Program-made: the position numbers and the translations under genes
NCBI RefSeq assembly: GCF_010499455.1
Contig: NZ_JAAGOH010000003.1
Span: forward strand, 62,001 to 126,000
Reading direction: 5' to 3'
Length of the DNA: 64,000 nt
DNA from: Ideonella livida
GTDB taxonomy: Bacteria > Pseudomonadota > Gammaproteobacteria > Burkholderiales > Burkholderiaceae_C
Shown: piece by piece, positions 2,800 to 43,150 of the stretch
Numbering within the stretch: the first letter of the stretch is position 1
Layout of the letters: each line of letters begins with the position of its first letter
Notes under the pieces: model-generated
Told to the model about the DNA's origin: nothing
What the model saw: only the letters and a program-made list of their open reading frames with translations
The model's database searches: none

Positions 2800-4431
2800 A
2801 TGCACACCCCCGCCCTTTGCCGCCGCCACCTGCTGAGCCTGGCGGCCACCCTGGCCACCGCCGCCACGCTGGCCCTGGCCCCGGCCGCCACCCGGGCCGA
2901 CACCCCGGCCGACCAGCTGGTGATCGGCTTCAGCATGAACAACCTGCTCTCGCTGGACCCGGCCAACGCCACCGGCCTGGACGTGGCCGAGATCTTCGCC
3001 AACGTCTACGACACCCTGGTGGTGCTGGACCCCGCCAACCCGCGCCAGGTGCAGCCCGGCCTGGCCGAGCGCTGGCAGATTGCCGCCGATGGCAAGAGCC
3101 TGCGCTTCACGCTACGCAAGGGCGCCAGCTTCCACAGCGGCAACCCGGTGACGGCAGACGAGGCCGCCTGGTCCCTGCAGCGGGTGGTCAAGCTCAACCT
3201 GGCTTTGGCCACGGTGTGGAAGAGCTACGGCTTTTCCAAGGAGAACGTGGAGAAGTTCATCCGCGCCGAGGATGCCCAGACGCTGGTCGTCGAGCTGCCC
3301 GAGCCGGGGGATGCGCGGCTGGTGCTCTACACCCTGGCCACCTCGGTGAGCGCGGTGGTGCTGGACCGCAAGACCGTGATGGCCAACGAGAAGGGGCTGG
3401 ACATGGGGGCGGCCTGGCTCATCAACCACACCGCCGGCTCGGGCGCCTTCAAGCTGGACGAGTGGCGCGCCAAGGAGGTGCTGCTCGCCAGCCGCTTTGA
3501 GGGCTACTGGCGCGGCCCGGCCAAGCTGCGGCGCATCGTCTGGCGGCACATGAGTGAGTCGCAAAGCTTGCGCTTGATGCTGGAGCGTGGGGATCTGGAC
3601 GTGGCCACCGGCATGGCCCCGCCGGACATCGAGGCACTCAAGAGCCACCCCAAGATCCGCACCCAGGCGGTGCAGCGCGGCACGATCTATTACGTGGCCG
3701 CCCAATCCAAGGACGGCCCGTTTGCCGACAAGCGCGTACGCCTGGCGCTGCGCCACCTCATCGACTATGAGGGGCTGAACAAGACGGTGATGCCGCACTT
3801 CGGCGTGCTCAACCAGCGTCCGGTGCAGCTGGGTCTTGCCGCCACGTTGCCGCAGCCGGGCTACACCCTGGACGTGGCCCGTGCCAAAGCGCTGCTGGCG
3901 CAGGCGGGTTTCCCCAATGGCTTCAAGACCACCATCCGCGCCGTGGCCGAGCCGCCTTTCACCCACATCGCCACCAACCTGCAGGCCACGCTGGCGCAGG
4001 CGGGCATCGAGGCCAGCATCCTCACCGGCACCGGCAACCTGGTGTACGGCGCCATGCGCGACCGCCGCTTTGACCTCATCGTCGGCCGCGGCGGTGGCGG
4101 CACCGAGCCGCACGCCTACTCCAGCCTGCGCTCCCTGGTCTACAACCCCGACAACAGCGACGCCGCCAAGCTCACCAACTTCCAGGGTTGGCGCACCGGC
4201 TTTCAGAGCACCGCGCTCAACGAGCTGGTGGACAAGGCGCTGCTCGAGCCGCGTGAGGACCGGCAGGTCAAACTCTTCCAGGACGCCCAGCGCCTGTATG
4301 AGCAGGAGGTGGGCGGCATCCAGCCCGTCTCGCAGATGGTGGAAACCGTGCTGCTGCGCAGTGATGTGCAGGGCTACCAGAGCCACCCCTCGGCCACCAC
4401 GCGCCTGCACGGCGTGAGCAAGCAGCGCTGA
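2800..4431 (+). CDS. ABC transporter periplasmic substrate-binding protein, peptide/nickel (SBP_bac_5) type
   Basis: A 543-aa precursor with a Sec signal peptide (hydrophobic stretch about residues 8-32, ending ATRA-DTPA), then a family-5 binding protein: FSMNNLLSLDPANATG at the mature N-terminus, AERWQIAADGKSLRFTLRKGASFHSG in the first third, and a long C-terminal lobe. The start follows AGGAGA. It is the receptor of the importer encoded by the next four genes. The family is named for peptides, but many members bind sugars or sugar acids, and the neighbours here argue for a sugar-acid or oligo-uronide ligand (inference). Confidence 0.92.
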   Translation: MHTPALCRRHLLSLAATLATAATLALAPAATRADTPADQLVIGFSMNNLLSLDPANATGLDVAEIFANVYDTLVVLDPANPRQVQPGLAERWQIAADGKSLRFTLRKGASFHSGNPVTADEAAWSLQRVVKLNLALATVWKSYGFSKENVEKFIRAEDAQTLVVELPEPGDARLVLYTLATSVSAVVLDRKTVMANEKGLDMGAAWLINHTAGSGAFKLDEWRAKEVLLASRFEGYWRGPAKLRRIVWRHMSESQSLRLMLERGDLDVATGMAPPDIEALKSHPKIRTQAVQRGTIYYVAAQSKDGPFADKRVRLALRHLIDYEGLNKTVMPHFGVLNQRPVQLGLAATLPQPGYTLDVARAKALLAQAGFPNGFKTTIRAVAEPPFTHIATNLQATLAQAGIEASILTGTGNLVYGAMRDRRFDLIVGRGGGGTEPHAYSSLRSLVYNPDNSDAAKLTNFQGWRTGFQSTALNELVDKALLEPREDRQVKLFQDAQRLYEQEVGGIQPVSQMVETVLLRSDVQGYQSHPSATTRLHGVSKQR

Positions 4432-4452
4432 AGGCGCGGGAAGGAAACCGTC

Positions 4453-5508
4453 ATGGCCCTGTCTGCCGTGTTTTCAAGGGTAAGTCCGGCGCTGCTGCTG
4501 GCGGGTGTGCGCCGGCTGGGCAGCGTGGCCATCACGCTGCTGGGCCTGTTGGCGCTGACCTTCGCCATCGGGCGGGTGATGCCGGTGGACCCGGTGCTGT
4601 CCATCGTCGGGCCGGATGCGGATCGCTCCACCTACGAGCAGGTGCGCGCCCAGCTCGGCCTGGACCAGCCACTGAGCGCCCAGTTCACCCGCTACCTGGG
4701 TGAGCTGGCCCAAGGTGACCTGGGCAAGGCCATGCTCAGCGGCAACCCGGTGAGTGAGGACATCGCGCGTGTCTTCCCGGCCACGGTGGAGCTGGCCACG
4801 CTGGCCATCGTCATCGGCACGGCGCTGGGGGTGCCGCTGGGGGTGTGGGCCGCCGCACGGCGCGGGCGCTGGGCGGACCATGCCGTGCGCCTCATCAGCC
4901 TCATTGGCCACTCCACCCCGGTGTTCTGGTTCGCCATGATGGGTCTGCTGGTGTTCTACGCCTGGCTGGGCTGGGCCGGCGGCAGCGGCCGGCTGGACCT
5001 GAGCTACGACGGCCTGGTGGCCTCGCGCACGGGCTTTTTGCTGATTGACGCCGCGCTGGCCGGCGAGTGGGCGGTGTGGGGCAGTGCGCTCAAGCACATC
5101 ACCTTGCCGGCCACCATCTTGGCGCTGCACGCCATGGCCTACATCGCCCGCATGACGCGCAGTTTCATGCTCGCCCAGCTGGGGCAGGAATACATCCTCA
5201 CCGCCCGGGTCAAGGGGCTGAGCGAGCGCGCCGTGCTCTGGAACCACGCGTTTCGCAACTGCCGGGTGCAGCTGCTCACCATCGTCGCCCTGACCTACGG
5301 CGGCCTGCTCGAAGGCGCCGTGCTGGTGGAAACCGTCTTCGCCTGGCCGGGCTTTGGCCAGTACCTCACCAGCAGCCTGATGCTGGGGGACATGAACGCG
5401 GTGATGGGTTCGGTGCTGCTGGTGGGGCTGCTGTTCATCGGCCTGAACCTGCTGTCCGACCTGCTCTACCAGGTGTTTGACCCGCGCACCCGCACCCAAC
5501 GCCAGTGA
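4453..5508 (+). CDS. ABC transporter inner-membrane permease, DppB type
   Basis: A 351-aa inner-membrane protein with six predicted hydrophobic segments: LLGLLALTFAIGRVM near the N-terminus, the large periplasmic loop with YEQVRAQLGLDQPLSAQF, and the coupling region EYILTARVKGLSERAVLWNHAFRN, which is the EAA loop that contacts the ATPases. This is the first of the two half-channels of a peptide-type importer. Its stop overlaps the GTG at 5505 of the next permease, which suggests translational coupling. Confidence 0.93.
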   Translation: MALSAVFSRVSPALLLAGVRRLGSVAITLLGLLALTFAIGRVMPVDPVLSIVGPDADRSTYEQVRAQLGLDQPLSAQFTRYLGELAQGDLGKAMLSGNPVSEDIARVFPATVELATLAIVIGTALGVPLGVWAAARRGRWADHAVRLISLIGHSTPVFWFAMMGLLVFYAWLGWAGGSGRLDLSYDGLVASRTGFLLIDAALAGEWAVWGSALKHITLPATILALHAMAYIARMTRSFMLAQLGQEYILTARVKGLSERAVLWNHAFRNCRVQLLTIVALTYGGLLEGAVLVETVFAWPGFGQYLTSSLMLGDMNAVMGSVLLVGLLFIGLNLLSDLLYQVFDPRTRTQRQ

Positions 5509-6503
5509 GGCCGACACGGCCCCACACCGCCAATCGCCCTTCGCCTGACGAAAGCGCCCCCGCAATGTCCGCCACCAGCCCCCGCTGTGCCGCCATGAAT
5601 CCGACCGCCTCCCCCCCCGCCAGCCCCAAGGCCGCCGCCGCCGCCTCCGCCGCCACCCAGGAGGTGCGCTCCGAGCGCCGCCGCGCCCTGCGCCGGTTGC
5701 TGCGCAATCCGCTGACGCGCTTTGGCATGGCGGTGATCTTCGCCTTGCTGGCCGTGGCCCTGTTCGCCCCCTGGCTGGCCACCCATGACCCGCTGGCGCA
5801 GGACCTCAACCGCGCCCTGCAGGCGCCCAGCGCCCAGCACTGGTTCGGCACCGACGAGTACGGGCGCGACCTCTACAGCCGCGTGATCCACGGCGCACGC
5901 ATCACGCTCTACATCGTGATGCTGGTGACCGTGATCGTCGGCCCCATCGGACTGGCGGTGGGGGTGGTGTCGGGCTACTTTGGCGGCTGGGTGGACGGCG
6001 CCATCATGCGTGTCACCGACATCTTCCTGTCCTTCCCCAGCCTGGTGCTGGCCCTGGCCTTTGTGGCCGCCCTGGGCCCAGGTCTGGACCATGCGGTGAT
6101 GGCCATCGCACTCACCGCCTGGCCGCCCATCGCCCGCCTGGCCCGTGCCGAGACGCTGACCCTGCGTCGCGCCGACTTCATCGTGGCCGTGCAGCTGCAG
6201 GGCGCCAGCGCGCTGCGGGTGCTGGGGCGCCACCTGGTGCCGCTGTGCCTGCCCTCGGTGATCGTGCGGCTGACCATGAACATGGCCAGCATCATCCTCA
6301 CCGCCGCCGGCCTGGGTTTTCTGGGCCTGGGCGCGCAGGCCCCGGCGCCGGAGTGGGGCGCCATGATCTCCGAAGGCCGCCGCACCATGATGGAAGCCTG
6401 GTGGACGGTGGCCGCCCCCGGCGGCGCCATCTTGCTGGTGAGCCTGGCCTTCAACCTGCTGGGCGACGGTCTGTATGACCTGCTTGACCCGCGTGGCGAA
6501 TGA
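5505..6503 (+). CDS. ABC transporter inner-membrane permease, DppC type
   Basis: Second half-channel. The core carries LLRNPLTRFGMAVIFALLAVALFAPWLA (first membrane segment), FGTDEYGRDLYSRVIHGAR, a hallmark of DppC proteins, and an EAA loop around RADFIVAVQLQGASALRVLGRHLVP. The start is uncertain: GTG 5505 overlaps the previous stop, while in-frame ATGs at 5565 and 5595 would give more usual N-termini; the first 50 residues are low-complexity Ala/Pro. The stop at 6503 overlaps an ATG at 6500 of the following gene. Confidence 0.92.
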   Translation: MRPTRPHTANRPSPDESAPAMSATSPRCAAMNPTASPPASPKAAAAASAATQEVRSERRRALRRLLRNPLTRFGMAVIFALLAVALFAPWLATHDPLAQDLNRALQAPSAQHWFGTDEYGRDLYSRVIHGARITLYIVMLVTVIVGPIGLAVGVVSGYFGGWVDGAIMRVTDIFLSFPSLVLALAFVAALGPGLDHAVMAIALTAWPPIARLARAETLTLRRADFIVAVQLQGASALRVLGRHLVPLCLPSVIVRLTMNMASIILTAAGLGFLGLGAQAPAPEWGAMISEGRRTMMEAWWTVAAPGGAILLVSLAFNLLGDGLYDLLDPRGE

Positions 6504-6517
6504 AAGGAACCGCGACC

Positions 6518-7402
6518 ATGAGCCATTCCATCCCAACCCCCTTGGCCCCCGCGCCAGCCCTGGCACCCGCCAAGCCCACCCTGGAGGTGGAGAACCTGCA
6601 CGTGCGTTTCCGCCAGGACGAGCGCGAGACCCACGCCGTGCGCGGCGTCTCCTTCAGCCTGGGCCGCGAGAAGCTGGCCATCGTCGGCGAGTCCGGTTCG
6701 GGCAAGTCCACCGTCGGCCGGGCGCTGCTGGGGCTGCTGCCGCGCAGCGCCCGCATCGAGGCCGACGTCCTGCGCCTGGACGGCCAGGACCTGCGCGGCG
6801 CCAGCGAAGCCACGCTGCGCGAGCTGCGCGGGCGGCGCATCTCCATGATCATGCAGGACCCGAAATACGCCCTCAACCCGGTGATGCGGGTGGGCGAGCA
6901 GATCGCCGAGGCCTGCCTGACGCACCACCGCGTCAGCCGCGCCGAGGCCTGGGAGCGCACGCTGGCGATGCTGGCCTCGGTGCGCATCCAGGAGCCGGCG
7001 CGGGTGGCGCGCCTGTACCCGCACGAGGTCTCGGGCGGCATGGGCCAGCGCGTGATGATCGCCATGATGCTGATCACCGAGCCCGAGCTGCTGATCGCCG
7101 ACGAGCCGACCTCGGCGCTGGATGTGTCGGTGCGCCAGCAGGTGCTCAACATCCTGGACGAGCAGGTGCGCCAGCGCGGCCTGGGCCTGTTGTTCATCTC
7201 GCACGACCTGCCGCTGGTGCGGCGCTTTTGCGACCGCGTGCTGGTGATGTACGCCGGCCGCGTGGTGGAGAGCCTGCCGGCCAGCCAACTCGCCCAGGCT
7301 CAGCACCCCTACACCCAGGGCCTGATGGCCGCGCTGCCGCGTCTGCACCAGCCCTGTGACCGCCTGCCCGTGCTGCAGCGCGACCCGGCCTGGGCGCTGT
7401 GA
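6518..7402 (+). CDS. ABC transporter ATPase, DppD type
   Basis: About 294 aa with Walker A GESGSGKS, Q-loop IMQDPKYALNP, signature VSGGMGQR, Walker B LLIADEPTSALDVS and switch histidine ISHDL. The C-terminal HPYTQGLMAALPRL segment is the oligopeptide-type extension. The signature has MG where most relatives have Q-Q or RQ, which is tolerated in DppD proteins. I prefer ATG 6518 over ATG 6500 because AAAGGAACC lies at the right distance before 6518. It pairs with the next ATPase to drive the importer. Confidence 0.92.
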   Translation: MSHSIPTPLAPAPALAPAKPTLEVENLHVRFRQDERETHAVRGVSFSLGREKLAIVGESGSGKSTVGRALLGLLPRSARIEADVLRLDGQDLRGASEATLRELRGRRISMIMQDPKYALNPVMRVGEQIAEACLTHHRVSRAEAWERTLAMLASVRIQEPARVARLYPHEVSGGMGQRVMIAMMLITEPELLIADEPTSALDVSVRQQVLNILDEQVRQRGLGLLFISHDLPLVRRFCDRVLVMYAGRVVESLPASQLAQAQHPYTQGLMAALPRLHQPCDRLPVLQRDPAWAL

Positions 7403-7443
7403 GCGCAGCCGCTTCCTTTGTGACGCATTTTGGGAAGACCCCG

Positions 7444-8181
7444 ATGGCGATGATCCAGATCCAAGACCTGAGCCTGTCCTTTGCCGGTGTGCCGGTGCTG
7501 CACGGCGTGAACCTGACCGTGCGGGAAGGGGAGGCCTTCGGGCTGCTGGGCGAATCCGGCTCCGGCAAGACCACCGTGCTGCGCTGCCTGGCCGGTCAGT
7601 ACCACCATTGGCGTGGACAGATCCAGGTGGCGGGTGAGGCGCTCACCCACCGCCTCACCCTGGCGCGCTGCCGCCACATGCAGATGGTGTTTCAGGACCC
7701 CTACGGCAGCCTGCACCCGCGCCACAGCGTGGCCACGGCACTGACCGAGCCGTTGCACATCCACCGCCTGGGCGATGTGGACGGGCGCATCGACCGCGTG
7801 CTGACCCAGGTGGGCCTGAGCCCAGCCTTTCGCGAGCGCCTGCCGCACCAGCTCTCAGGCGGCCAGCGTCAGCGCGTGGCGATTGCGCGCGCCCTCATCC
7901 TGGAGCCGCGTGTGCTGCTGCTGGACGAGCCGACCTCGGCGCTGGATGTCTCGGTGCAGGCCGAAATCCTCAACCTGCTGGCCAGCCTGCGCGAGCGCCA
8001 CGGCCTGACCTACCTCATGGTCACGCACGACCTGGGCGTGGTGGCTCACCTTTGCGACCGCATTGGCGTCATGGCGGCCGGCCGCCTGGCTGAGGTGCTG
8101 AGCCGGGACCAGCTGCGCGCCGGCCAGGTGCAGGCGCCCGCCACCCGGGCCCTGCTGGACGCCTGCGCCGAAACGGCCTGA
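7444..8181 (+). CDS. ABC transporter ATPase, DppF type (short form)
   Basis: About 245 aa with Walker A GESGSGKT, Q-loop FQDPYGSLHPRHSV, signature LSGGQRQR, Walker B LLLDEPTSALDVS and VTHDLGVV. It is the second ATPase of the importer. It is shorter than typical DppF proteins of about 330 aa and lacks their oligopeptide C-terminal extension. GTG 7399 overlaps the preceding stop, but ATG 7444 has GGGAAGA upstream and starts right before the ABC domain, so I use it. The stop codon lies inside a short 10-base tandem repeat. Confidence 0.9.
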   Translation: MAMIQIQDLSLSFAGVPVLHGVNLTVREGEAFGLLGESGSGKTTVLRCLAGQYHHWRGQIQVAGEALTHRLTLARCRHMQMVFQDPYGSLHPRHSVATALTEPLHIHRLGDVDGRIDRVLTQVGLSPAFRERLPHQLSGGQRQRVAIARALILEPRVLLLDEPTSALDVSVQAEILNLLASLRERHGLTYLMVTHDLGVVAHLCDRIGVMAAGRLAEVLSRDQLRAGQVQAPATRALLDACAETA

Positions 8182-8198: not shown

Positions 8199-8300
8199 AA
8201 CGCCGCCGCCCGCCTGCGGCTGGCGCGGAAGCGGCCGGACCGCATCCGTAGTTCCCCCCAGCACAAAGCTGAAACCACGGCTTGGCGTCGTCCAAGCCAT

Positions 8301-8320
8301 GTTGTACGATGACGTATAAC
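8301..8320. promoter_or_regulatory. Inverted repeat upstream of the KdgD gene (GTTGTACG-N4-CGTATAAC)
   Basis: Eight-base arms with one mismatch, separated by four bases, lying 18 bases before the start codon. The size and the GT...AC layout fit a FadR-subgroup operator, and the centre contains GATGAC, the half-site seen at 1382-1558. It may let the regulator of the upstream operon act again here. This is inference. Confidence 0.45.
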
Positions 8321-8338
8321 TTACTCGGAGACCCCGCC

Positions 8339-9250
8339 ATGTCCCCCCAAGAGCTCAAGACCGTTCTCGAAGCCGGCCTGCTGTCCTTCCCCCTGACCGA
8401 CTTTGACGCCCAGCTCAATTTCGAGCCCAAGGGCTACGCAGAGCGTCTGGAGTGGCTGCAGCCCTACGGCGCCTCGGCGCTGTTCGCCGCCGGCGGCACG
8501 GGTGAGTTCTTCTCCCTGGAGCCGGGCGAGTACAGCCACGTGATCCAGGTGGCGCTGGACACCTGCCGCAACCGCACCCCCATCCTGGCCGGCGCCGGCG
8601 GCCCCACCCGTGTGGCCATCCAGTACGCCCAAGAGGCGGAGCGCCTGGGCGCCCAGGGCATCCTGCTGCTGCCGCACTACCTGACCGAGGCCAGCCAGGA
8701 AGGCCTGATCGCCCACGTGCAGGCCGTCTGCCGCAGCGTCAAGTTCGGCGTGGTGGTCTACAACCGTGGTGGCTGCCGCCTGACCCCGCAAAGCCTGCTG
8801 GTGCTGGCCGAGACCTGCCCGAACCTGATCGGCTTCAAGGACGGCATCGGCGACATCGAGAAGTTCGTCGCCATCCGCCAGACCCTGGGCGAGCGCTTTG
8901 CCTACCTGGGTGGCCTGCCCACCGCCGAAGTCTTTGCCGGTGCCTACAAGGCCATGGGCTGCCCGGTCTATTCCTCCGCCGTCTTCAACTTCATCCCGAA
9001 GACCGCCATGGACTTCTACAACGCCCATGCCGCCGGTGACACCGCCACCTGCGACCGCCTGATCCGCGAGTTCTTCCTGCCCTACATCGCCCTGCGCAAC
9101 AAGGGCGAGGGCTACGCGGTGGCCATCGTCAAGGCCGGTGCCGCCATCGCCGGCCATGCCGCCGGCCCGGTGCGCCCGCCGCTGTCGGACCTCAAGGCCT
9201 CGGAGGTGGAAGAGCTGCGCGCCCTGATGGCCCCCCTGGGCCCGCAATAA
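8339..9250 (+). CDS. kdgD: 5-dehydro-4-deoxyglucarate dehydratase (KdgD), DapA/DHDPS family
   Basis: A 303-aa class I lyase-fold enzyme that decarboxylates and dehydrates 5-dehydro-4-deoxy-D-glucarate to alpha-ketoglutarate semialdehyde (EC 4.2.1.41). Schiff-base lysine K167 sits in [10 protein letters not shown], and Y141 in VVYNRGG matches the family tyrosine. The opening SFPLTDFD and the [11 protein letters not shown] loop are characteristic of KdgD rather than of DHDPS itself. The start at 8339 has CGGAG upstream. It comes before a Bug receptor and the aKGSA dehydrogenase that would use its product, completing the aldarate branch begun by the dehydratase at 1576. Confidence 0.93.
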
Positions 9251-10464: not shown

Positions 10465-11961
10465 ATGAGCACCCTGCAATCCTTCAGCGCCCGCACGGGC
10501 GACGTGCTGGCCGAGCTGCCGGCCACCTCTCCTGCAGCGGTGGACGCCGCCTGCGAGGCCGCCGCCGCCGCCTTCGCCCCGTGGCAAGCCGCCACCGGTG
10601 CCGAGCGCGCCGCCCTGCTGCGCGGCCTGGCCGCCGCGCTGGAGGCCGACCGCGAAGCCCTGGTGGCCCTGGCCGATCAGGAAACCGCCCTGGGCCCGGT
10701 GCGCCTGAACGGCGAGCTCGACCGCACCGCCTTCCAGCTGCGCCGCTTTGCGGACTTGGCAGAGCGCGGCGAGCCCTTCGCCTTCGTGGACGACCCCGCC
10801 GTGGCCGGCGCCCCGCCGGCGGGCCACCCCGCCATGCAGCGCTGGAGCGTGCCGCTGGGCCCGGTGGCCATGTTCTCGGCCAGCAACTTCCCCTTCGCCT
10901 TCTCGGTGTTGGGCGGTGACACCGCTTCGGCCCTGGCCGCCGGCTGCCCGGTGGTGGTCAAGGCCCACACCGGCCACCTGCAGCTGTCCAACCGCGTGTT
11001 CGGCCTGATCCAGCAAGTGCTGGCCGCCCAAGGCCTGCCCGCCGGCCTGGTGGGCCTGGTGCAGGGCGGTGGCCGTGACGTGGGCGTGCGCCTGATCCGC
11101 CACCCGGCCATCGCGGCCGGCGCCTTCACCGGCTCCACCCAAGGGGGGGCCGCCCTGGCCGCCGAGGCCGCGGCCCGCCCGCGCCCCATCCCGTTCTACG
11201 GCGAGCTGGGCTCGGTCAACCCCACCATCGCCCTGCCGGCCAAGCTGGCCACCGACGGCGCCGCCCTGGCCACCACCCTGGCCGGCTCCATCACCCTGGG
11301 CTGCGGCCAGTTCTGCACCAACCCCGGCGTGATCCTGCTGATTGACGAGGTGCAGCCGGAGATGGACGCCAAGGCGGTGAACGACGCCTTTGTGGCCCAG
11401 CTCGCCGAAGCGCTCAAGGCCCAGCAGCCGCACGCCATGCTCACCACCGCCATGCGTGGTGCCTTTGAAGCCGGCGTGGCCCATTGGGCCCAGGCCGGGG
11501 CCGACATGCTGCTGCAGGAAACCGCCGCCGCCGGCCAGCCGCCGCGCCCGGTGCTGGCCCAGGTCAGCGCGCTGGAGTTCATCGCCAAGGCCGCGCTGCG
11601 TGAAGAAGTCTTCGGCCCCAGCAGCCTGATCGTGCGCGCCGCGTCTTTGAGCCAGGCCCTGCAGGTGCTGCAGGCCGTGGGCGGCAGCCTGACCGTGACC
11701 CTGTGGGGCGTGGAGCAGGACAGCGACAAGTCCCGCGCCCTGGTGCGCGGTGCCATGGCCATTGCCGGGCGCGTGCTGTTTGCCGGCGTGCCCACCGGTG
11801 TGGCCGTGACCGCTGCGCAGCAGCACGGTGGCCCATGGCCCAGCAGCACGCGGCCGGAGACCACCTCGGTGGGCGACGCCGCGCTGGCGCGCTTCCTGCG
11901 CCCGGTGTGCCTGCAGGACGCCCCGGCCTGGCTCACCGCCCGCGCCGGCCGTCCGGTCTGA
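10465..11961 (+). CDS. Alpha-ketoglutarate semialdehyde (2,5-dioxovalerate) dehydrogenase, copy 1
   Basis: A 498-aa aldehyde dehydrogenase that oxidises aKGSA to 2-oxoglutarate with NAD(P)+. Key residues: N141 (SASNFPF), K166 (VVVKAHTGH), general base E247 (YGELGSVNP) and nucleophile C284 (GCGQFCTNPG). The FCTNPG and GELGSVNP wording belongs to the KGSADH branch. It uses the product of KdgD two genes upstream. The coding sequence is almost identical to that at 17559-19055: I see six substitutions, all between 11814 and 11868, one of which changes T466 to S in the other copy. No purine-rich ribosome-binding site stands before this ATG, unlike copy 2. An intrinsic terminator follows at 12075. 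Confidence 0.94.
   Translation: MSTLQSFSARTGDVLAELPATSPAAVDAACEAAAAAFAPWQAATGAERAALLRGLAAALEADREALVALADQETALGPVRLNGELDRTAFQLRRFADLAERGEPFAFVDDPAVAGAPPAGHPAMQRWSVPLGPVAMFSASNFPFAFSVLGGDTASALAAGCPVVVKAHTGHLQLSNRVFGLIQQVLAAQGLPAGLVGLVQGGGRDVGVRLIRHPAIAAGAFTGSTQGGAALAAEAAARPRPIPFYGELGSVNPTIALPAKLATDGAALATTLAGSITLGCGQFCTNPGVILLIDEVQPEMDAKAVNDAFVAQLAEALKAQQPHAMLTTAMRGAFEAGVAHWAQAGADMLLQETAAAGQPPRPVLAQVSALEFIAKAALREEVFGPSSLIVRAASLSQALQVLQAVGGSLTVTLWGVEQDSDKSRALVRGAMAIAGRVLFAGVPTGVAVTAAQQHGGPWPSSTRPETTSVGDAALARFLRPVCLQDAPAWLTARAGRPV
10465..11961 (+). repeat. Near-identical 1497-bp direct repeat, copy 1 (pairs with 17559-19055)
   Basis: Identity between the two copies begins at the start codon (one shared C before it) and stops at the stop codon (TCTGA, then C here and G in copy 2). 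The only differences I could read are six bases within 11814-11868. The offset between copies is 7094 bases. Confidence 0.93.
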
Positions 11962-12074
11962 CGCACTGCCCCTCTGGCGCTGGGACATGGGGCCGCCCCA
12001 CAGGATCCCGCGCCTGAGGTGAATCCTCTCCTTCCGGGTGCCGTCGCCCTGAGCGGGTGCCGGCTTCCCTTGCA

Positions 12075-12112
12075 GCCGCCTGCGGTGTCATCACCCCAGG
12101 CGGCATTTTTTT
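12075..12112 (+). terminator. Intrinsic terminator after aKGSA dehydrogenase copy 1
   Basis: GCCGCCTG (12075-12082) pairs with CAGGCGGC (12097-12104); inside, GGTG pairs with CACC around the loop TCAT, and seven T residues follow at 12106-12112. It ends the plus-strand operon that begins at 1576. Its T tract touches the stop codon of the convergent LysR gene. Confidence 0.9.
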
Positions 12113-13061
12113 ATCCGCCGTCCACGGCCCCCGGCGCCAGGGCATGGAGCAGCTCCAGAAAGCGCCGCGCCGCCGGGTTGACCGGCCGGTCGCGGCGGAT
12201 GATGGAGCTGTAGGCGTCCAGGCGCCCGGGCAGATCAATCGGCAGCACACACAGCTGGCCGCGGCTGGCGTAATAGTCGGCCAGCGCCGCGGGCAGCACG
12301 GCCACCATGGGGGCTTGCGCCAGCAAAAAGCTGGTGGTGAGGATGGACGCCGTTTCCACCAGATCCTGTGGCACATCCACGCCGGCATGGCGGAAGGCCT
12401 GTTCCAGCACCTCGCGCATGGGCGAGCCCCGCGGCTGCAGCACCCAGGGCTGTGACATCAGTTCCAGCAGGCCCACCGCGCGGCCGTCCGCCCAGGGGTG
12501 CTGAGGCCCCACGACCACCCGCAGGGCTTCGTCGTCCAGCGGCTTGACCTCATGGTCCGCGCGCCGATGGCCTTCGGTCAGGCGGCCGATCACCAAGTCC
12601 AGGTGACCGCTGGCCAGCTGGTCCATCAGCAGGTCGCTGGTCTCGGTGTGGATGGAGACCCGCAGGCGTGGCTGCTCGCGCTTGATGGCCACCACAGCAC
12701 GACTGAGCAGGGTGGGGGAGGGGGCCAGCACGCTGCCGATGTCCAGCGTGCCGCCATCGCCGGCGCGCAGGCCTTCCAAGTCCCGGGCGAGGGCGGTCAT
12801 CGCGCCGCGCAGCCCTTCAAAGTGCCCCAGCACCGTCTGCCCGGCCGGGGTCAGGCGCAGTCCACGGCCTTCCCGCTCCACCAACCGGCAGGCCAGGGCG
12901 GTCTCCAGCTCCTGCAGCATCTTGGTGGCGGCGGGCTGGGTCATGCCCAGCTCTGTGGCCGCCGCCCCCAGCGTGCCGTGCTGCTGCAGGGCCAGCAACA
13001 AGGCCACTTGGCGCAGCCGTAGGCGGTTGAGCAGCTGGCTGGCCCGCAATGAGTCGCTCAT
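12111..13061 (-). CDS. LysR-family transcriptional regulator
   Basis: A 316-aa LysR protein: N-terminal helix-turn-helix (LALQQHGTLGAAATELGMTQPAATKMLQELE) followed by a periplasmic-binding-like effector domain. ATG 13061 begins MSDSLRASQLL and is preceded by GGGGG. It is divergent from the Bug-receptor operon at 13195, with a promoter block between them containing TTCATAACC and a facing GGTT-C-TATGA. The same block recurs at 19103 ahead of the TRAP operon, so this regulator probably controls both operons and its own gene (inference). Confidence 0.9.
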   Translation of the reverse strand: MSDSLRASQLLNRLRLRQVALLLALQQHGTLGAAATELGMTQPAATKMLQELETALACRLVEREGRGLRLTPAGQTVLGHFEGLRGAMTALARDLEGLRAGDGGTLDIGSVLAPSPTLLSRAVVAIKREQPRLRVSIHTETSDLLMDQLASGHLDLVIGRLTEGHRRADHEVKPLDDEALRVVVGPQHPWADGRAVGLLELMSQPWVLQPRGSPMREVLEQAFRHAGVDVPQDLVETASILTTSFLLAQAPMVAVLPAALADYYASRGQLCVLPIDLPGRLDAYSSIIRRDRPVNPAARRFLELLHALAPGAVDGG

Positions 13062-13130
13062 TTCATAACCCCCGGTGATGGTTCTATGAGATGTTTTCAC
13101 TATACCGGCATGTATTGTGGGCCTACGATG
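13062..13130 (+). promoter_or_regulatory. LysR-type operator/promoter block, copy 1
   Basis: An inverted repeat TTCATAACC (13062-13070) facing GGTTCTATGA (13080-13089) is followed by a conserved core with TATACC at 13101-13106, a possible -10 element, and GCCTACGATG at the right end. Thirty bases (13086-13115) are identical to 19127-19156. The block abuts the LysR start codon and precedes the operon at 13195. Confidence 0.7.
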
Positions 13131-13194
13131 CCCCTCATGGCTGGTGCAGAAGCCCTGCACTGTGTGCCAACACAACAACGCTGGAGACATGCCG

Positions 13195-14190
13195 ATGACC
13201 CCCTTCACCCGCCGCCGCGCCTTGGGCGCCCTGACCCTGCTGCCCGGCCTGGGCGCTGCGCCGCTGCTGCTGGCCCCCGCCGGCGCCCGCGCCCAGGCCT
13301 GGCCCACACAGCCGGTGAAGCTGATGGTGGGCTCCAGCCCCGGCGGCGGCACCGACGCCATGGCCCGCACCGTGGCCGACAAGCTGGGCCCCGCCCTGGG
13401 CGGCACCGTGGTGGTGGAGAACCGGCCCGGCGTGTCCAACACCCTGGCGGTGGACGCGGTGGCCAAGAGCGGCGACGGCCATGTCATGGTCATGGGCGTG
13501 TCCACCGCACACGCGATTGCCCCACACCTCATCCGCCTGGGCTATGACAACGAGCGCGATGTGGTGCCGGTGGTCTACGTGGGCGCCGTGCCCAATGTGC
13601 TGGTGGTGGCCGCCACCTCGCCCTACAAGACCGTGGCCGAGCTGGTGGCCGACGCCCGCAAGCAGCCGGGGCGCCTGAACTACGCCTCCTCGGGCAACGG
13701 CAGCACCCAGCACATCGCCGGCGAAATGTTCGAGGAGTCCACCGGCATCATCCTCAACCATGTGCCCTACCGGGGCTCGGCCCCCGCCCTGGTGGACCTG
13801 ATGGGCGGCCAGGTGCAGCTGAGCTTTGACACGCTGGCCTCGGTGCTGCCGCACATCAAGGGCGGCAAGCTGCGCGCCCTGGCCGTGTGCAGCAGCGCCC
13901 GCAACGAGCAGCTGCCCGGTGTACCCACCCTGGCCGAGGCGGGTGTGAAGGACGTGGAGATGAGCGCCTGGTACGGCATCTACATGAAGGCGGGCACGCC
14001 CAAGCCGGTGCAGCAGCGTGTGCACGACGAGGTCAACAAGCTGCTGGCCCTGCCCGAGAGCCGCGCCCGCCTGGCCACCTTTGGTGCCGACCACCAGCCC
14101 ATGAGCCAAGCCCAGTTCCAGGCTTTCCATGTGGCTGAGAACAAGCGCTACGCCGACCTCATCAAGCGCCGCAACATCAAGATCGACTGA
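13195..14190 (+). CDS. Bug/TctC family periplasmic receptor
   Basis: A 331-aa precursor with a twin-arginine-like n-region (TRRRALGA), a hydrophobic core and a cleavage site near ARAQA. The mature protein has the Bug signature WPTQPVKLMVGSSPGGGTDAMAR and the second loop HIAGEMFEESTGIILNHVPYRGSAPAL. Of two ATGs, 13195 is 9 bases after TGGAG and is preferred to 13189. It is the first gene of an operon with PdxA-like, RhmD-like, keto-deoxy-acid dehydratase and aKGSA dehydrogenase genes, so the ligand is probably a sugar acid or lactone. No TctA/TctB gene is linked. Confidence 0.9.
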   Translation: MTPFTRRRALGALTLLPGLGAAPLLLAPAGARAQAWPTQPVKLMVGSSPGGGTDAMARTVADKLGPALGGTVVVENRPGVSNTLAVDAVAKSGDGHVMVMGVSTAHAIAPHLIRLGYDNERDVVPVVYVGAVPNVLVVAATSPYKTVAELVADARKQPGRLNYASSGNGSTQHIAGEMFEESTGIILNHVPYRGSAPALVDLMGGQVQLSFDTLASVLPHIKGGKLRALAVCSSARNEQLPGVPTLAEAGVKDVEMSAWYGIYMKAGTPKPVQQRVHDEVNKLLALPESRARLATFGADHQPMSQAQFQAFHVAENKRYADLIKRRNIKID

Positions 14191-14217
14191 TTCCACGCTC
14201 TCACCTGGGCCGCTCCG

Positions 14218-15252
<1,035 letters not shown>

Positions 15253-15307
15253 GATCAGCGCCCACCTCCCCATCGATTCCGACTTCTTCCTCGACTGGAA
15301 CCACCCC

Positions 15308-16480
15308 ATGAAGATCACGTCCGTCCGCGCCCGCGTCTTTGAATGGAAGGGCAAGACCGTCCCGCCGCAGGGCAACTTCTGCTCCAACGCCATGGACCTG
15401 CTGTACTCGCGGCAAGAAACCATGAAGACCTTCCGCTTCCACCAGTGGACGGTCGTCGAGATCGAGACCGACACCGGCCTGGTGGGCTACGGCAACGTGG
15501 CCCTGGCGCCGAAGGTGGCCAAGCAGATCATCGACCAGTACCTCACCCCGCTGGTGATGGGCCAGGACCCCTGGGACTACGAGTACCTCAGCCAGCGCAT
15601 GTACCGCGCCACCCACGCCTGGGGCCGCAAGGGCGTGGGCATGGCCGCCATCTCAGCGGTGGACCTGGCGATCTGGGACATCCTGGGCAAGAGCGTGAAC
15701 AAGCCGGTGTTCAAGCTGCTGGGCGGGCGCACCAAGGAAAAGATCCCCTGCTACTACAGCAAGCTCTACCGCACCGACCTCGACGAGATGCAGAAGGAGG
15801 CCGAGACCTTCCTCAAGCAGGGCTTCACCGCCTTCAAGATGCGCTTCGGCTACGGCCCCAAGGACCTGCAGAAGGGCGTGGTGGAGAACCTCAAGAGCGT
15901 GGCCGCGGTGCGCGAGGTGATTGGTTATGACACCGACCTGATGCTCGAGTGCTACATGGGCTGGAACCTGGAGTACACCAAGCGCATGCTGCCCAAGCTG
16001 GCCCAGTACCAGCCGCGTTGGCTGGAGGAGCCGGTGATCGCCGACGACATCGACGGCTACGCCGAGTTGAACGCCATGAACATCATCCCGATCTCGGGCG
16101 GCGAGCATGAGTTCAGCCTCTACGGCTTCAAGCAGCTGCTCGACCGCAAGGCGGTGAGTGTGGTGCAGTACGACACCAACCGCGTGGGCGGCATCACCAT
16201 GGCGCACAAGATCAACGCGCTGTGCGAGGCCTACTCGGTGCCGGTCATCCCGCACGCCGGCCAGATGCACAACTACCACCTGACCATGAGCACGCTGGCC
16301 TCGCCGATGGCCGAGTACTTCCCGATGTTTGATGTGGAAGTGGGCAACGAGCTGTTCTATTACATCTTCGACGGCGAGCCGGTGGCCGAGAACGGCTTCC
16401 TGGACCTGCGTGACGACGTTCCCGGCCTGGGCCTGAGCCTGAAGACCGAGTTCCTCGACCAGTTCGACATCACCGAGTGA
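15308..16480 (+). CDS. L-rhamnonate-dehydratase-like enolase superfamily enzyme
   Basis: A 390-aa mandelate-racemase-fold protein resembling RhmD. Candidate catalytic residues: K177 (FKMRF), metal ligands E214 (LMLECYMG), E240 (WLEEP) and E266 (SGGEHEF), and the D289/H316 dyad (QYDTNR, VIPHAG). In E. coli RhmD the first ligand is an aspartate, so the glutamate at 214 is notable. The enzyme should dehydrate an aldonate to a 2-keto-3-deoxy acid, which the next gene product could take on to aKGSA if the substrate is a pentonate such as L-arabinonate. The substrate is an inference from that neighbour. Confidence 0.88.
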
Positions 16481-16488
16481 GCCCGGTC

Positions 16489-17424
16489 ATGCCCACCCCT
16501 TCCGCCAGCGCCCCGCGCTATCGGGGCGTCTTCCCGGTGGTGCCCACCATCTTCCACGCCGACGGCACGCTGGACCTGCCCGGCCAGCGCCGCTGCGTGG
16601 ACTTCATGATCGACGCCGGCTCCCACGGCCTGGCCATCCTGGCCAACTTCTCCGAGCAGTTCGCGCTCTCGGACGCCGAGCGCGAGGTCCTCACCCGCGA
16701 CATCCTGACCCACGTGGCCGGCCGCGTGCCGGTGATCGTGACCACCACGCACTTCAGCAGCGCGGTGTGCGCCGCCCGCTCGCGCCAAGCCCAGGATCTG
16801 GGCGCGGCCATGGTGATGGTGATGCCGCCCTACCACGGCGCCACGCTGCGGGTGGGCGAGGCCCAGGTGCTGGACTTCTACCGCACCGTAGGTGCCGCGG
16901 TGGACATCCCCGTGATGATCCAGGACGCCCCCATGTCCGGCACACCGCTGCCCGCCCCGCTGCTGGCCCGGCTGGCGCAGGAGGTGGAGACGATCCGCTA
17001 CTTCAAGATCGAGGTGCCGCGCGCGGCTGACAAGCTGCGCGAGCTGATCGCCCTGGGCGGCGAGGCCATCGAAGGCCCCTGGGACGGCGAGGAGGGCATC
17101 ACCCTCTGGGCCGACCTGGAGGCCGGTTGCACCGGCGCCATGACCGGCGGCGGCTTCCCCGACGGCATGCGCGCCATCTTTGACGCCTACCACGCCGGCC
17201 GGCGCGACGAGGCCTACGCCCTGCACGAGCGCTGGGCGCCGCTGATCAACTGGGAAAACCGGCAGGCCGGCTTCCTGGCCGCCAAGGCCCTGATGCAGGC
17301 CGGCGGCGTGATCGCCTGCGGCGCGCCGCGCGCGCCCTTCCCGGACATCAGCCCCGGCGTGCGCCACGGCCTGCTGGACATCGCCCGCCGGCTGGACCCG
17401 CTGGTGCTGCGCTGGGCGCGCTGA
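16489..17424 (+). CDS. L-2-keto-3-deoxyarabonate dehydratase (DHDPS family)
   Basis: A 311-aa DapA-fold enzyme closely resembling, from memory, the Azospirillum L-KDA dehydratase (EC 4.2.1.43): opening YRGVFPVVPT, the segments ILANFSEQFAL and MPPYHGAT, Schiff-base lysine K173 in IRYFKIEVP, and IEGPWDGEEGITLWADL. It converts L-2-keto-3-deoxyarabonate to aKGSA. It follows the RhmD-like dehydratase immediately; a GTG at 16477 overlaps the previous stop, but ATG 16489 gives the usual N-terminus. The product is the substrate of the dehydrogenase encoded next, although an intrinsic terminator lies between the two genes. Confidence 0.9.
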   Translation: MPTPSASAPRYRGVFPVVPTIFHADGTLDLPGQRRCVDFMIDAGSHGLAILANFSEQFALSDAEREVLTRDILTHVAGRVPVIVTTTHFSSAVCAARSRQAQDLGAAMVMVMPPYHGATLRVGEAQVLDFYRTVGAAVDIPVMIQDAPMSGTPLPAPLLARLAQEVETIRYFKIEVPRAADKLRELIALGGEAIEGPWDGEEGITLWADLEAGCTGAMTGGGFPDGMRAIFDAYHAGRRDEAYALHERWAPLINWENRQAGFLAAKALMQAGGVIACGAPRAPFPDISPGVRHGLLDIARRLDPLVLRWAR

Positions 17425-17504
17425 CGGTGTGCCGGCCTGACCTGCCGGCCCGCGCCCCAGCGGGTCTTACCGCCTGACCGCGGCCCACGCGGGATCCCTT
17501 GTGT

Positions 17505-17544
17505 GGCCCGGCACGGTGCACCCGCACCGCGCCGGGCCGTTTTT
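17505..17544 (+). terminator. Strong intrinsic terminator hairpin directly ahead of aKGSA dehydrogenase copy 2
   Basis: Arms 17505-17519 (GGCCCGGC-A-CGGTGC) and 17524-17538 (GCACCG-C-GCCGGGCC) pair over 14 of 15 positions around the loop ACCC, and five T residues follow at 17540-17544. The ribosome-binding site TGGAG (17549-17553) of the next gene follows at once. Transcripts from the operon would largely end here unless readthrough or attenuation control applies. Confidence 0.88.
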
Positions 17545-17558
17545 CTTCTGGAGCTGTC

Positions 17559-19055
17559 ATGAGCACCCTGCAATCCTTCAGCGCCCGCACGGGCGACGTG
17601 CTGGCCGAGCTGCCGGCCACCTCTCCTGCAGCGGTGGACGCCGCCTGCGAGGCCGCCGCCGCCGCCTTCGCCCCGTGGCAAGCCGCCACCGGTGCCGAGC
17701 GCGCCGCCCTGCTGCGCGGCCTGGCCGCCGCGCTGGAGGCCGACCGCGAAGCCCTGGTGGCCCTGGCCGATCAGGAAACCGCCCTGGGCCCGGTGCGCCT
17801 GAACGGCGAGCTCGACCGCACCGCCTTCCAGCTGCGCCGCTTTGCGGACTTGGCAGAGCGCGGCGAGCCCTTCGCCTTCGTGGACGACCCCGCCGTGGCC
17901 GGCGCCCCGCCGGCGGGCCACCCCGCCATGCAGCGCTGGAGCGTGCCGCTGGGCCCGGTGGCCATGTTCTCGGCCAGCAACTTCCCCTTCGCCTTCTCGG
18001 TGTTGGGCGGTGACACCGCTTCGGCCCTGGCCGCCGGCTGCCCGGTGGTGGTCAAGGCCCACACCGGCCACCTGCAGCTGTCCAACCGCGTGTTCGGCCT
18101 GATCCAGCAAGTGCTGGCCGCCCAAGGCCTGCCCGCCGGCCTGGTGGGCCTGGTGCAGGGCGGTGGCCGTGACGTGGGCGTGCGCCTGATCCGCCACCCG
18201 GCCATCGCGGCCGGCGCCTTCACCGGCTCCACCCAAGGGGGGGCCGCCCTGGCCGCCGAGGCCGCGGCCCGCCCGCGCCCCATCCCGTTCTACGGCGAGC
18301 TGGGCTCGGTCAACCCCACCATCGCCCTGCCGGCCAAGCTGGCCACCGACGGCGCCGCCCTGGCCACCACCCTGGCCGGCTCCATCACCCTGGGCTGCGG
18401 CCAGTTCTGCACCAACCCCGGCGTGATCCTGCTGATTGACGAGGTGCAGCCGGAGATGGACGCCAAGGCGGTGAACGACGCCTTTGTGGCCCAGCTCGCC
18501 GAAGCGCTCAAGGCCCAGCAGCCGCACGCCATGCTCACCACCGCCATGCGTGGTGCCTTTGAAGCCGGCGTGGCCCATTGGGCCCAGGCCGGGGCCGACA
18601 TGCTGCTGCAGGAAACCGCCGCCGCCGGCCAGCCGCCGCGCCCGGTGCTGGCCCAGGTCAGCGCGCTGGAGTTCATCGCCAAGGCCGCGCTGCGTGAAGA
18701 AGTCTTCGGCCCCAGCAGCCTGATCGTGCGCGCCGCGTCTTTGAGCCAGGCCCTGCAGGTGCTGCAGGCCGTGGGCGGCAGCCTGACCGTGACCCTGTGG
18801 GGCGTGGAGCAGGACAGCGACAAGTCCCGCGCCCTGGTGCGCGGTGCCATGGCCATTGCCGGGCGCGTGCTGTTTGCCGGCGTGCCCACCGGTGTGGCCG
18901 TGACCGCCGCGCAGCAGCACGGCGGCCCGTGGCCCAGCAGCACCCGGCCGGAGAGCACCTCCGTGGGCGACGCCGCGCTGGCGCGCTTCCTGCGCCCGGT
19001 GTGCCTGCAGGACGCCCCGGCCTGGCTCACCGCCCGCGCCGGCCGTCCGGTCTGA
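17559..19055 (+). CDS. Alpha-ketoglutarate semialdehyde dehydrogenase, copy 2
   Basis: A 498-aa aldehyde dehydrogenase whose protein differs from copy 1 (10465-11961) only at residue 466 (Ser here, Thr there). It has the same active-site residues N141, K166, E247 and C284. It would oxidise the aKGSA made by the L-KDA dehydratase encoded just upstream to 2-oxoglutarate. The start has GGAG 8 bases upstream, after a terminator hairpin. The six base differences from copy 1 all fall in 18908-18962, five of them silent. This pattern suggests recent duplication or gene conversion restricted to the coding region. Confidence 0.94.
   Translation: MSTLQSFSARTGDVLAELPATSPAAVDAACEAAAAAFAPWQAATGAERAALLRGLAAALEADREALVALADQETALGPVRLNGELDRTAFQLRRFADLAERGEPFAFVDDPAVAGAPPAGHPAMQRWSVPLGPVAMFSASNFPFAFSVLGGDTASALAAGCPVVVKAHTGHLQLSNRVFGLIQQVLAAQGLPAGLVGLVQGGGRDVGVRLIRHPAIAAGAFTGSTQGGAALAAEAAARPRPIPFYGELGSVNPTIALPAKLATDGAALATTLAGSITLGCGQFCTNPGVILLIDEVQPEMDAKAVNDAFVAQLAEALKAQQPHAMLTTAMRGAFEAGVAHWAQAGADMLLQETAAAGQPPRPVLAQVSALEFIAKAALREEVFGPSSLIVRAASLSQALQVLQAVGGSLTVTLWGVEQDSDKSRALVRGAMAIAGRVLFAGVPTGVAVTAAQQHGGPWPSSTRPESTSVGDAALARFLRPVCLQDAPAWLTARAGRPV
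17559..19055 (+). repeat. Near-identical 1497-bp direct repeat, copy 2 (pairs with 10465-11961)
   Basis: Coterminous with the coding sequence. Flanking DNA is unrelated on both sides: a terminator hairpin upstream here against a CCTCC-rich leader in copy 1, and GTCGGG downstream here against CGCACT in copy 1. Confidence 0.93.
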
Positions 19056-19102
19056 GTCGGGCTGGCGGGCGGGGCAGGGGAGGGCAAGGGAAGGCCGCCC
19101 AA

Positions 19103-19171
19103 TTCATAACCCCAAGCAATGGGTTCATGAGATGTTTTCACTATACCGGCATGTATGCGCTGCCTACGATG
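19103..19171 (+). promoter_or_regulatory. LysR-type operator/promoter block, copy 2
   Basis: TTCATAACCC (19103-19112) faces GGGTTCATGA (19121-19130), a better inverted repeat than in copy 1. The conserved core includes TATACC (19142-19147), and GCCTACGATG ends the block. Thirty bases are identical to 13086-13115. It would place the TRAP operon under the LysR regulator encoded at 12111-13061. Confidence 0.7.
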
Positions 19172-19245
19172 CATGCCACGGGGGTACCGAGACGGTGACG
19201 AACCGGCCCGGGCCCACCGGCACAACAAGGATGGAGACAAGACCC

Positions 19246-19344
19246 ATGAACCGCTGCACCGCCCAGGGGACGCCGCGCACCACGCCCGGCCCCGCCCCAA
19301 CCGCTCCCCCTCCATGGCGCCGCCCGGCGCCGATGTGGCGCTGA
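19246..19344 (+). CDS. Possible 32-aa ORF, perhaps a leader or gene remnant
   Basis: ATG 19246 has GGAGACAAG upstream and sits at nearly the same distance from the promoter block as the real gene start at 13195. The peptide is Pro/Arg-rich, without a signal peptide or known domain. It may be a leader ORF or the stub of a gene lost after duplication of the promoter region. Coding status is doubtful. Confidence 0.25.
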   Translation: MNRCTAQGTPRTTPGPAPTAPPPWRRPAPMWR

Positions 19345-19477
19345 GCGCCTTGGCGGGCTGAGGCCCGCGACCTCCTTCCACCCCACACCCGTTTGTCCCA
19401 TAGGCAGGGCCGGTGCCACCGGCCTGGCCGGGCTCGTCTCGCCCCGTCTCGCCTAGCGCCCCTTGAAGGTCACCACC

Positions 19478-28449: not shown

Positions 28450-28461
28450 GCCCCATGGCGC

Positions 28462-29055
28462 TCAACGCGGCCTGTCCAGCTGCCACTGCAAATGGGCCTT
28501 GACGGCCGGCCAGTCGGGCGCAATCACGCTGTAGACGCAGGTGTCGCGCAGGCTGCCGTCGGGCAGCTTCTGGTGGTGGCGCAGCACACCGTCGAGCTTG
28601 GCGCCCAGGCGTTCAATGGCCCGCCGGCTTTGCTGGTTGAAGAAGTGGGTGCGGAACTCCACCGCAATGCAGCCCAGCGTTTCAAAGGCATGCTGCAACA
28701 GCATCAGCTTGCAGGCGGTGTTAAAGCCGCTGCGCTGCACGCTGGCTGCCGTCCAGGTGGAGCCGATCTCCACCCGCCGGTTCGCCGCGTCGATGTTCAT
28801 GTAGGTGGTCATGCCGCGCACGGTGCCACCGGCATCCACGCTGACAAAGGGCAGCATGCTGCCCTTGGCCTGCAGGTCCAGGCGGCGCTGGATTTCGGCA
28901 CGCATGCCCTCGGGGCTGGGCACGACGGTGTACCAGAGGCGCCACAGTTCTCCATCTTGGGCAGCCGCCACCAGGGCGTCGTGGTGCTCCGGCAGCAGCG
29001 GCTCCAGGCGGGCCAGGGGGTGGGTGAGGGTGACGGGGGCGGGCCAGGTGGACAT
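28462..29055 (-). CDS. GNAT family N-acetyltransferase, RimJ/RimL type
   Basis: A 197-aa protein of the GNAT fold: LEPLLPEHHDALVAAAQDGELW at the N-terminus, VRGMTTYMNIDAANRRVEIGSTW, and the acetyl-CoA-binding stretch QRSGFNTACKLMLLQHAFETLGCIAVEFRTHFFNQQSRRAIERLGAK. The last part, with its asparagine after the beta-bulge and the EFRTH strand, is typical of RimJ/RimL-like enzymes that acetylate protein N-termini or small amines. The substrate is unknown. It is convergent with the methyltransferase gene, 12 bases apart. Confidence 0.87.
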   Translation of the reverse strand: MSTWPAPVTLTHPLARLEPLLPEHHDALVAAAQDGELWRLWYTVVPSPEGMRAEIQRRLDLQAKGSMLPFVSVDAGGTVRGMTTYMNIDAANRRVEIGSTWTAASVQRSGFNTACKLMLLQHAFETLGCIAVEFRTHFFNQQSRRAIERLGAKLDGVLRHHQKLPDGSLRDTCVYSVIAPDWPAVKAHLQWQLDRPR

Positions 29056-29169
29056 AGAGACGGCGAGGAGAAGCGCAGGAGGGGCGGCGACAAGGCCGTG
29101 CCGGCCAGCATACCCGCCCGCCCCCGCGGCCTGGAAAGCGCCGCGGGTGTCCAGCCCCGCCCACGGCCT

Positions 29170-31519: not shown

Positions 31520-31522
31520 GGA

Positions 31523-33489: not shown

Positions 33490-33511
33490 GGCGGAACGGC
33501 CGGGTCGGACC

Positions 33512-39543: not shown

Positions 39544-39545
39544 GC

Positions 39546-43129: not shown

Positions 43130-43150
43130 GATCAATGGAAGGCTTCACCC

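What the first reader, a model, noticed from the sequence alone, without database searches (positions are those of the whole stretch)
10465..19055. Two aKGSA dehydrogenase genes kept identical by apparent gene conversion
The 1497-bp genes at 10465 and 17559 are identical except for six substitutions confined to a 55-bp patch (11814-11868 / 18908-18962), with identity resuming on both sides. Identity starts at the ATG and ends at the stop, and the flanks are unrelated. A plain recent duplication would normally carry flanking DNA and scatter its differences. A conversion tract limited by the homologous coding region explains both facts; the patch may be a remnant of older divergence. Each copy closes a different pathway producing the same semialdehyde, so selection for dosage in both operons is plausible.
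Basis: partly seen in the sequence, partly recalled or inferred. Interest (0 to 1): 0.75.

Follow-up and report, generated by a model that had tools for sequence, protein, structure and literature searches.

The report
Near-identical enzyme genes in two operons
A bacterium carries two almost identical copies of one sugar-acid enzyme gene in two neighbouring gene groups, and comparison with relatives suggests that one copy was recently overwritten by, or copied from, the other, as is known for some other duplicated bacterial genes.

Summary
In detail: two 1497-bp genes, six differences, all within 55 bp, identity from ATG to stop, unrelated adjacent flanks. Copy B is the positional orthologue of a Sphaerotilus natans gene: same operon, third-position identity 84.6%, like its operon neighbours (82-88%). 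S. natans also has a kdgD-linked copy that groups with kdgD-linked copies of its relatives. Window copy A is kdgD-linked too but is B-type. So A was homogenised with, or copied from, B after the split from the S. natans B operon. The genome's tuf pair has the same anatomy, and there gene conversion is the known cause. A is not in the DH slot seen in relatives, so an earlier resident gene is unproven. The patch is too short and conserved to be assigned to any lineage. And contig lengths hint at a k=127 short-read assembly, in which the interior of the two copies could have been collapsed; only the ends are anchored. Most likely concerted evolution by gene conversion: a known kind, here in a catabolic enzyme.

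The parts
10465..11961 (+). DH copy A: aldehyde dehydrogenase (PF00171), probable alpha-ketoglutaric semialdehyde dehydrogenase, last gene of the opp-kdgD-TctC-DH group
   Evidence: B-type by sequence
17559..19055 (+). DH copy B, after lysR-tctC-pdxA-enolase-DHDPS; positional orthologue in S. natans (L015)
11814..11868 (+). divergent patch in copy A (differs from both L015 and L019 at four of the six sites)
18908..18962 (+). divergent patch in copy B (differs from both L015 and L019 at two of the six sites)
8282..9250 (+). kdgD, 5-dehydro-4-deoxyglucarate dehydratase, above the curated cut-off of TIGR03249
9284..10426 (+). TctC-family solute receptor between kdgD and copy A
2800..8181 (+). oligopeptide/dipeptide-type ABC transporter genes upstream of kdgD (matches below the models' curated cut-offs)
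13117..17424 (+). B operon: TctC receptor, PdxA-like, enolase-superfamily and DHDPS-family genes
12111..13079 (-). LysR-type regulator between the two groups (start chosen by me inside a longer ORF)
17505..17546 (+). terminator-like hairpin and T-rich tail between the DHDPS gene and copy B, with a similar stretch in S. natans
   Evidence: not listed by the simple scan
12075..12110 (+). terminator-like hairpin and T run after copy A
   Evidence: not listed by the simple scan

Best explanation
The pair undergoes concerted evolution. Shown: copy B belongs to its operon and is as diverged from the S. natans orthologue as the rest of that operon; copy A lies in a kdgD gene group but is a B-type sequence nearly identical to B. 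Inferred: RecA-dependent, non-reciprocal gene conversion between two direct repeats 7.1 kb apart, net direction B to A, limited by the ends of the coding sequence because the adjacent flanks share no homology. The 55-bp patch is either a stretch that escaped the last conversion, or a short later import into one copy.
For: Identities: A-B 99.6, B-L015 93.3, A-L019 84.7, L015-L019 84.8, L019-L016 93.5, L019-L017 92.4. Tree: A+B 100/99, with L015 100/100; L019 with L016 and L017 100/100. Third-position identity of DH_B to L015 is 84.6, against 82.2-88.2 for six other genes of that region; kdgD to L019 and L017 is 79.3 and 82.8, but DH_A to L019 only 69.5, so A does not share kdgD's history as seen in Sphaerotilus. 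The genome's tuf pair has the same anatomy: 1191-bp CDS, one difference at 1146, no shared 20-mer in 1.5-kb flanks. Salmonella tuf is an experimental model for conversion between two 1185-nt genes (PMC5485169, passages). In the patch L015 and L019 agree at all six sites, and both copies depart from them (A at four, B at two), as unconverted older divergence would.
Against: No trace of a kdgD-type DH was recognised in A, and A is not in the slot seen in relatives, so a resident recipient is inferred only. Conversion is described as aborting when it reaches the ends of the gene (PMC5485169, passages), so a single event that homogenised everything from ATG to stop is unlikely. B's patch equals the homologue L098 exactly (0 of 55 mismatches), which also fits a short import into B. 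At the six sites the wider set of 82 homologues is mixed, so which copy is derived rests on L015 and L019. Against L018 the third-position identities of kdgD and DH_A agree (73.6 and 74.1). The assembly may overstate interior identity.
Confidence: 0.55

Rival explanations
1. Recent one-off duplication: the bare coding sequence of B was copied to a new place behind the TctC gene of the kdgD group, with no earlier DH there; the patch came later by import or clustered mutation.
For: In L019 and L199 the order is kdgD-TctC-gudD-SMP30-DH-TctC(9284 type), whereas in this genome TctC-gudD-SMP30 lies elsewhere on the contig (L183, no DH match) and A follows the TctC gene. By eye there is no GGAG just before A, while B has one. 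The 38 bp before and 150 bp after A gave no blastn hit at E 0.01 in the fetched loci from other genomes (38 bp has little power).
Against: Both breakpoints would have to fall on the start and stop codons by chance. The six differences within 55 bp then need a separate event.
Confidence: 0.2
2. Assembly collapse: a short-read de Bruijn assembler (k=127) merged the interior of two less similar copies, so that only differences near the repeat's 3' end survive.
For: Three of the 22 small contigs fetched are exactly 255 bp = 2x127+1. With k=127 the copies share one unbroken run of 1224 k-mers, and the patch and its 93-bp tail leave no shared 127-mer after it. The single tuf difference is also near the 3' end. 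Two direct repeats on one contig form a simple loop that can be resolved without spanning reads (recalled).
Against: The first 126 bp are anchored in unique flank and show no difference, where divergence like the patch's would give about 14. It cannot explain why A's anchored 5' end is B-type. At most it hides scattered interior differences. The assembler is inferred: other small contigs are 210, 243 and 253 bp, and no overlap was found among 18 ends of nine large contigs.
Confidence: 0.2
3. Copy A was replaced from outside: a kdgD group that already carried a B-type DH was imported by horizontal transfer.
For: The B region is 89% (15303-20000) and 87% (12143-15246) like S. natans, while six of eight matches to the same genome in 28000-47500 are 75-83% (the other two 92 and 68), so transfer seems to occur here.
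Against: None of the kdgD-linked homologues in the tree is B-type; A is 99.6% identical to B of the same genome and 93% to the nearest other genome found.
Confidence: 0.05

Closest known systems
tufA/tufB gene conversion (Salmonella; PMC5485169, passages seen)
   Same: Two genes of about 1.2-1.5 kb, nearly identical over the coding sequence and kept alike within a genome; this genome's own tuf pair shows the same pattern with unrelated flanks
   Different: tuf is a highly expressed translation gene; in Salmonella its copies are 762 kb apart, inverted, with 12 dispersed differences. Here it is a catabolic enzyme, direct repeats 7.1 kb apart, clustered differences, seen as a near-identical pair in this genome only
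Long-lasting concerted evolution in prokaryotes, 26 genes (PMC6053082; abstract and section 8 seen)
   Same: Criterion of paralogues closer than orthologues of other species
   Different: Those are recurrent over many lineages; here one lineage, while S. natans keeps its two copies diverged
Alpha-ketoglutaric semialdehyde dehydrogenase isozymes for glucarate/galactarate and hydroxyproline (Watanabe 2007; seen only as an entry in the reference list of PMC6336799)
   Same: Several dehydrogenases for the same semialdehyde in different pathways
   Different: That title speaks of convergent evolution, hence different proteins; here nearly the same gene twice

Membership tests
Concerted evolution by gene conversion | Paralogues within a genome more alike than positional orthologues between genomes | tested here: met
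   99.6% against 93.3%; tree support 100/99
Concerted evolution by gene conversion | Both loci exist as positional orthologues in relatives, so that both copies predate the homogenisation | tested here: inconclusive
   Met for B (L015); for A the kdgD group holds a DH in relatives but at another position within the group
Concerted evolution by gene conversion | Homogenised tract confined to shared sequence, non-reciprocal | tested here: inconclusive
   Identity limited to the CDS; assembly may hide interior differences
Concerted evolution by gene conversion | Dependence on homologous recombination (RecA) | not testable with these tools
   needs an experiment
Alpha-ketoglutaric semialdehyde dehydrogenase | Member of the aldehyde dehydrogenase family | tested here: met
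   PF00171, 161 bits over cut-off 23
Alpha-ketoglutaric semialdehyde dehydrogenase | Score above an equivalog model's cut-off | tested here: not met
   NF052305 102.8 bits (cut-off 750) and NF042993 100.2 bits (cut-off 770); nearest solved chains are 3v4c, named aldehyde dehydrogenase (NADP+), and 1eyy
Alpha-ketoglutaric semialdehyde dehydrogenase | Gene neighbour that makes the semialdehyde | tested here: met
   kdgD above cut-off in A's group; kdgD within 5 kb upstream on the same strand in 27 of 80 homologous loci; for B the DHDPS-family neighbour had no NCBIfam match at E 1e-60. That KdgD makes this semialdehyde is recalled

The most novel reading that the evidence does not exclude
This dehydrogenase moves as a bare coding sequence: it was planted behind the terminator of the B operon in the shared ancestor of the window and S. 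natans operons, and later again, exactly from start to stop codon, at the end of the kdgD group, without a mobile element and without flanking homology.
Probability: 0.12. Interest if true: 0.65.

Novelty: new member of a known kind. Interest (0 to 1): 0.35.

Why it matters
It is a clear case in which positional orthology is broken by within-genome copying, visible because a relative keeps both copies diverged. Gene trees of such enzymes would misplace copy A. It also offers a catabolic gene pair to compare with tuf, and a warning that short-read assemblies may exaggerate such identity.

Tried and rejected
Patch as remnant of a kdgD-type gene: neither shown nor excluded. A's patch has 5 mismatches to L015; 6 to B, L098, L096, L022 and L037; 7 to L018, L017, L019, L025 and L035. 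The margin is too small to assign it. No homologue of 82 equals A's patch; one, L098, equals B's (0 of 55), but this is a conserved part of the gene and L098 differs from B directly outside it.

Finding k from contig overlaps: none among 18 ends of nine large contigs. One search gave meaningless overlaps because the small contigs are all N; redone without them, and the masking counted (22 of 22).

Empty-site comparison for DH in the B operon: the DHDPS-dctP intergenic stretches of L186 and L187 gave no match to the flanks of copy B (the one L186 match lies elsewhere in that locus).

Literature: searches for gene conversion with aldehyde dehydrogenase, concerted evolution and operon and with semialdehyde dehydrogenase, duplication and catabolic listed 1 and 3 papers, by title and abstract start all on eukaryotes; only this open-licence library was searched.

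Full report
OBSERVATION. The two genes are as described: 10465-11961 and 17559-19055, both +, 1497 bp, six substitutions within 55 bp, five synonymous. Third-position identity is 494 of 499. The script for same-strand exact repeats of 40 bp or more listed only the 1350 bp and 93 bp of this pair. The genome (104 contigs, 5.26 Mb) showed no third close copy; the next hit is 69% over part of the gene, but masked contigs could not be searched. The clustering is not chance (0 of 200,000 draws under either model).

ORGANISM. Not named.

WHERE THE GENES SIT. Copy A ends a group of ABC-transporter genes, kdgD (above the TIGR03249 cut-off), a TctC receptor and DH. Copy B follows a LysR regulator and TctC, PdxA-like, enolase-superfamily and DHDPS-family genes, and precedes a DctP-type receptor gene. 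A hairpin with a T-rich tail (17505-17546) lies between the DHDPS gene and B; blastn finds a similar stretch at the same place in S. natans (86.5% over 52 bp). The simple terminator scan did not list it, perhaps because its stem has an interior mismatch.

RELATIVES. One scan of genome contigs gave 284 encoding stretches, of which 80 were kept. In 27 of these 80 a kdgD lies within 5 kb upstream on the same strand (46 of 80 have a kdgD somewhere in the locus); in 2 of 80 (L015 S. natans, L051 Bordetella pseudohinzii) the neighbours are of the B type; in 32 of 80 neither was seen, several being short contigs. S. natans ATCC 13338 has both: L015 (B operon, syntenic) and L019 (kdgD group). Of 399 genomes drawn from the family, 25 had a match at E<=1e-200, the window's own genome included; each of the other 24 had one match. 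Only two candidates per genome were scored there, so further copies could be missed.

B OPERONS. Of 249 relatives, 30 had a match to the enolase/DHDPS stretch at E<=1e-150, the own genome included; 15 others match the enolase part. I read the stretch after the DHDPS gene in ten of these with longer flanks (L184-L192, L196; L184 is cut 1.4 kb after that gene, L192 has the gene apart from the rest) and looked at the other five in their 1.5-kb flanks (L168, L170, L172, L173, L175; L172 is cut inside the DHDPS gene). None shows a close DH there; four (L189, L196, L170, L173) have a distant aldehyde dehydrogenase match of 25-29%. Two further fetched loci (L193, L200) hold the DHDPS gene without this enolase and were not counted. 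So this DH in the B operon looks like an addition shared by the window and S. natans, and, more diverged, found in Bordetella.

WHO IS RELATED TO WHOM. Identities: A-B 99.6, A-L015 93.1, B-L015 93.3, A-L019 84.7, L015-L019 84.8, L019-L016 93.5, L019-L017 92.4. The tree of 28 rows (the two copies and 26 of 82 homologues, chosen by me for closeness and spread) groups A+B (100/99), then L015 (100/100); L019 groups with L016 and L017 (100/100). By third positions DH_B is as far from L015 (84.6) as six other genes of that region (82.2-88.2). kdgD is 79.3 and 82.8 to L019 and L017 (73.6 to L018), but DH_A is only 69.5 to L019 (74.1 to L018). Thus A does not share the history of its neighbour kdgD as seen in Sphaerotilus; it shares B's. 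Against L018 (Ideonella sp. B508-1) the two agree, so this contrast rests on the Sphaerotilus/Leptothrix loci.

CONVERSION OR NEW COPY. For conversion: gene-exact limits; kdgD groups of relatives often carry this DH; both copies depart from L015 and L019 within the patch; and the genome's tuf pair shows the same anatomy (1191 bp, one difference at 1146, no shared 20-mer in the 1.5-kb flanks). In Salmonella, conversion between tuf genes is measured directly (PMC5485169, passages), and direct repeats recombined 2.2-fold more often than inverted ones (PMC8262849, passages). For a new copy: L019 and L199 share the order kdgD-TctC-gudD-SMP30-DH-TctC(9284 type), whereas here TctC-gudD-SMP30 lies at C3:244 kb without a DH match (L183), and A sits after the TctC gene. 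The flanks of A match no fetched locus of another genome beyond the end of the TctC gene and the lysR gene. I weigh conversion at 0.55 and a new bare copy at 0.2.

THE PATCH. At the six sites L015 and L019 agree; relative to them A differs at 1350, 1365, 1371 and 1397, B at 1386 and 1404. Across 82 homologues the sites are mixed; at 1386 and 1397 the commonest base is B's and A's respectively. A's patch is nearest L015 (5 mismatches) but five others, B included, are at 6; B's equals L098. The patch is either older divergence that escaped homogenisation, or a short import into either copy.

ASSEMBLY. Three of 22 small contigs are exactly 255 bp long (2x127+1); others are 210, 243 and 253. This suggests, without proof, a de Bruijn assembly with k=127. 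At that k the copies share one run of 1224 k-mers. The first 126 bp (no difference) and the last 126 bp (three differences, the other three within one k-mer of them) are anchored in unique sequence; the rest could have been collapsed. No other assembly of the species was found with these tools.

ENZYME. Pfam Aldedh is met; the equivalog models for alpha-ketoglutaric semialdehyde dehydrogenase are far below cut-off; the nearest solved chains are 3v4c and 1eyy. The name rests on the kdgD neighbourhood, not on a model. Dosage selection is untested.

VERDICT. A real near-identical pair, most likely homogenised by gene conversion; a new instance of a known phenomenon, with an assembly caveat.

Noticed in passing
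window 19096-19331 and 13055-13287: The stretch after copy B (before the dctP gene) resembles the lysR-tctC region (65% over 244 columns), possibly a duplicated regulatory site for the LysR regulator.
   Followed up: partly
window 12143-20000 against L015; 28000-47500 against the same genome: The B region is closer to S. natans (87-89% DNA) than six of eight matches in a neighbouring stretch (75-83%; the other two 92 and 68), suggesting horizontal transfer between these lineages.
   Followed up: partly
L015 6629-7606: S. natans has an extra DctP-type receptor gene between the pdxA-like and enolase genes that the window lacks; L186 and L192 also have one.
   Followed up: no
L183 7162-10638 (same contig as the window, about 118 kb beyond its end): The genome's closest glucarate dehydratase, with a TctC and an SMP-30 gene, stands apart from kdgD, although L019 and L199 keep all in one group.
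   Followed up: partly
L189, L196, L170, L173: In four B-type operons a distant aldehyde dehydrogenase (25-29% to the window's) follows the DHDPS gene, as if another enzyme of that family fills the place.
   Followed up: no
L151 and L152: The two tuf genes of this genome, 19.5 kb apart, differ at one site of 1191 bp.
   Followed up: yes
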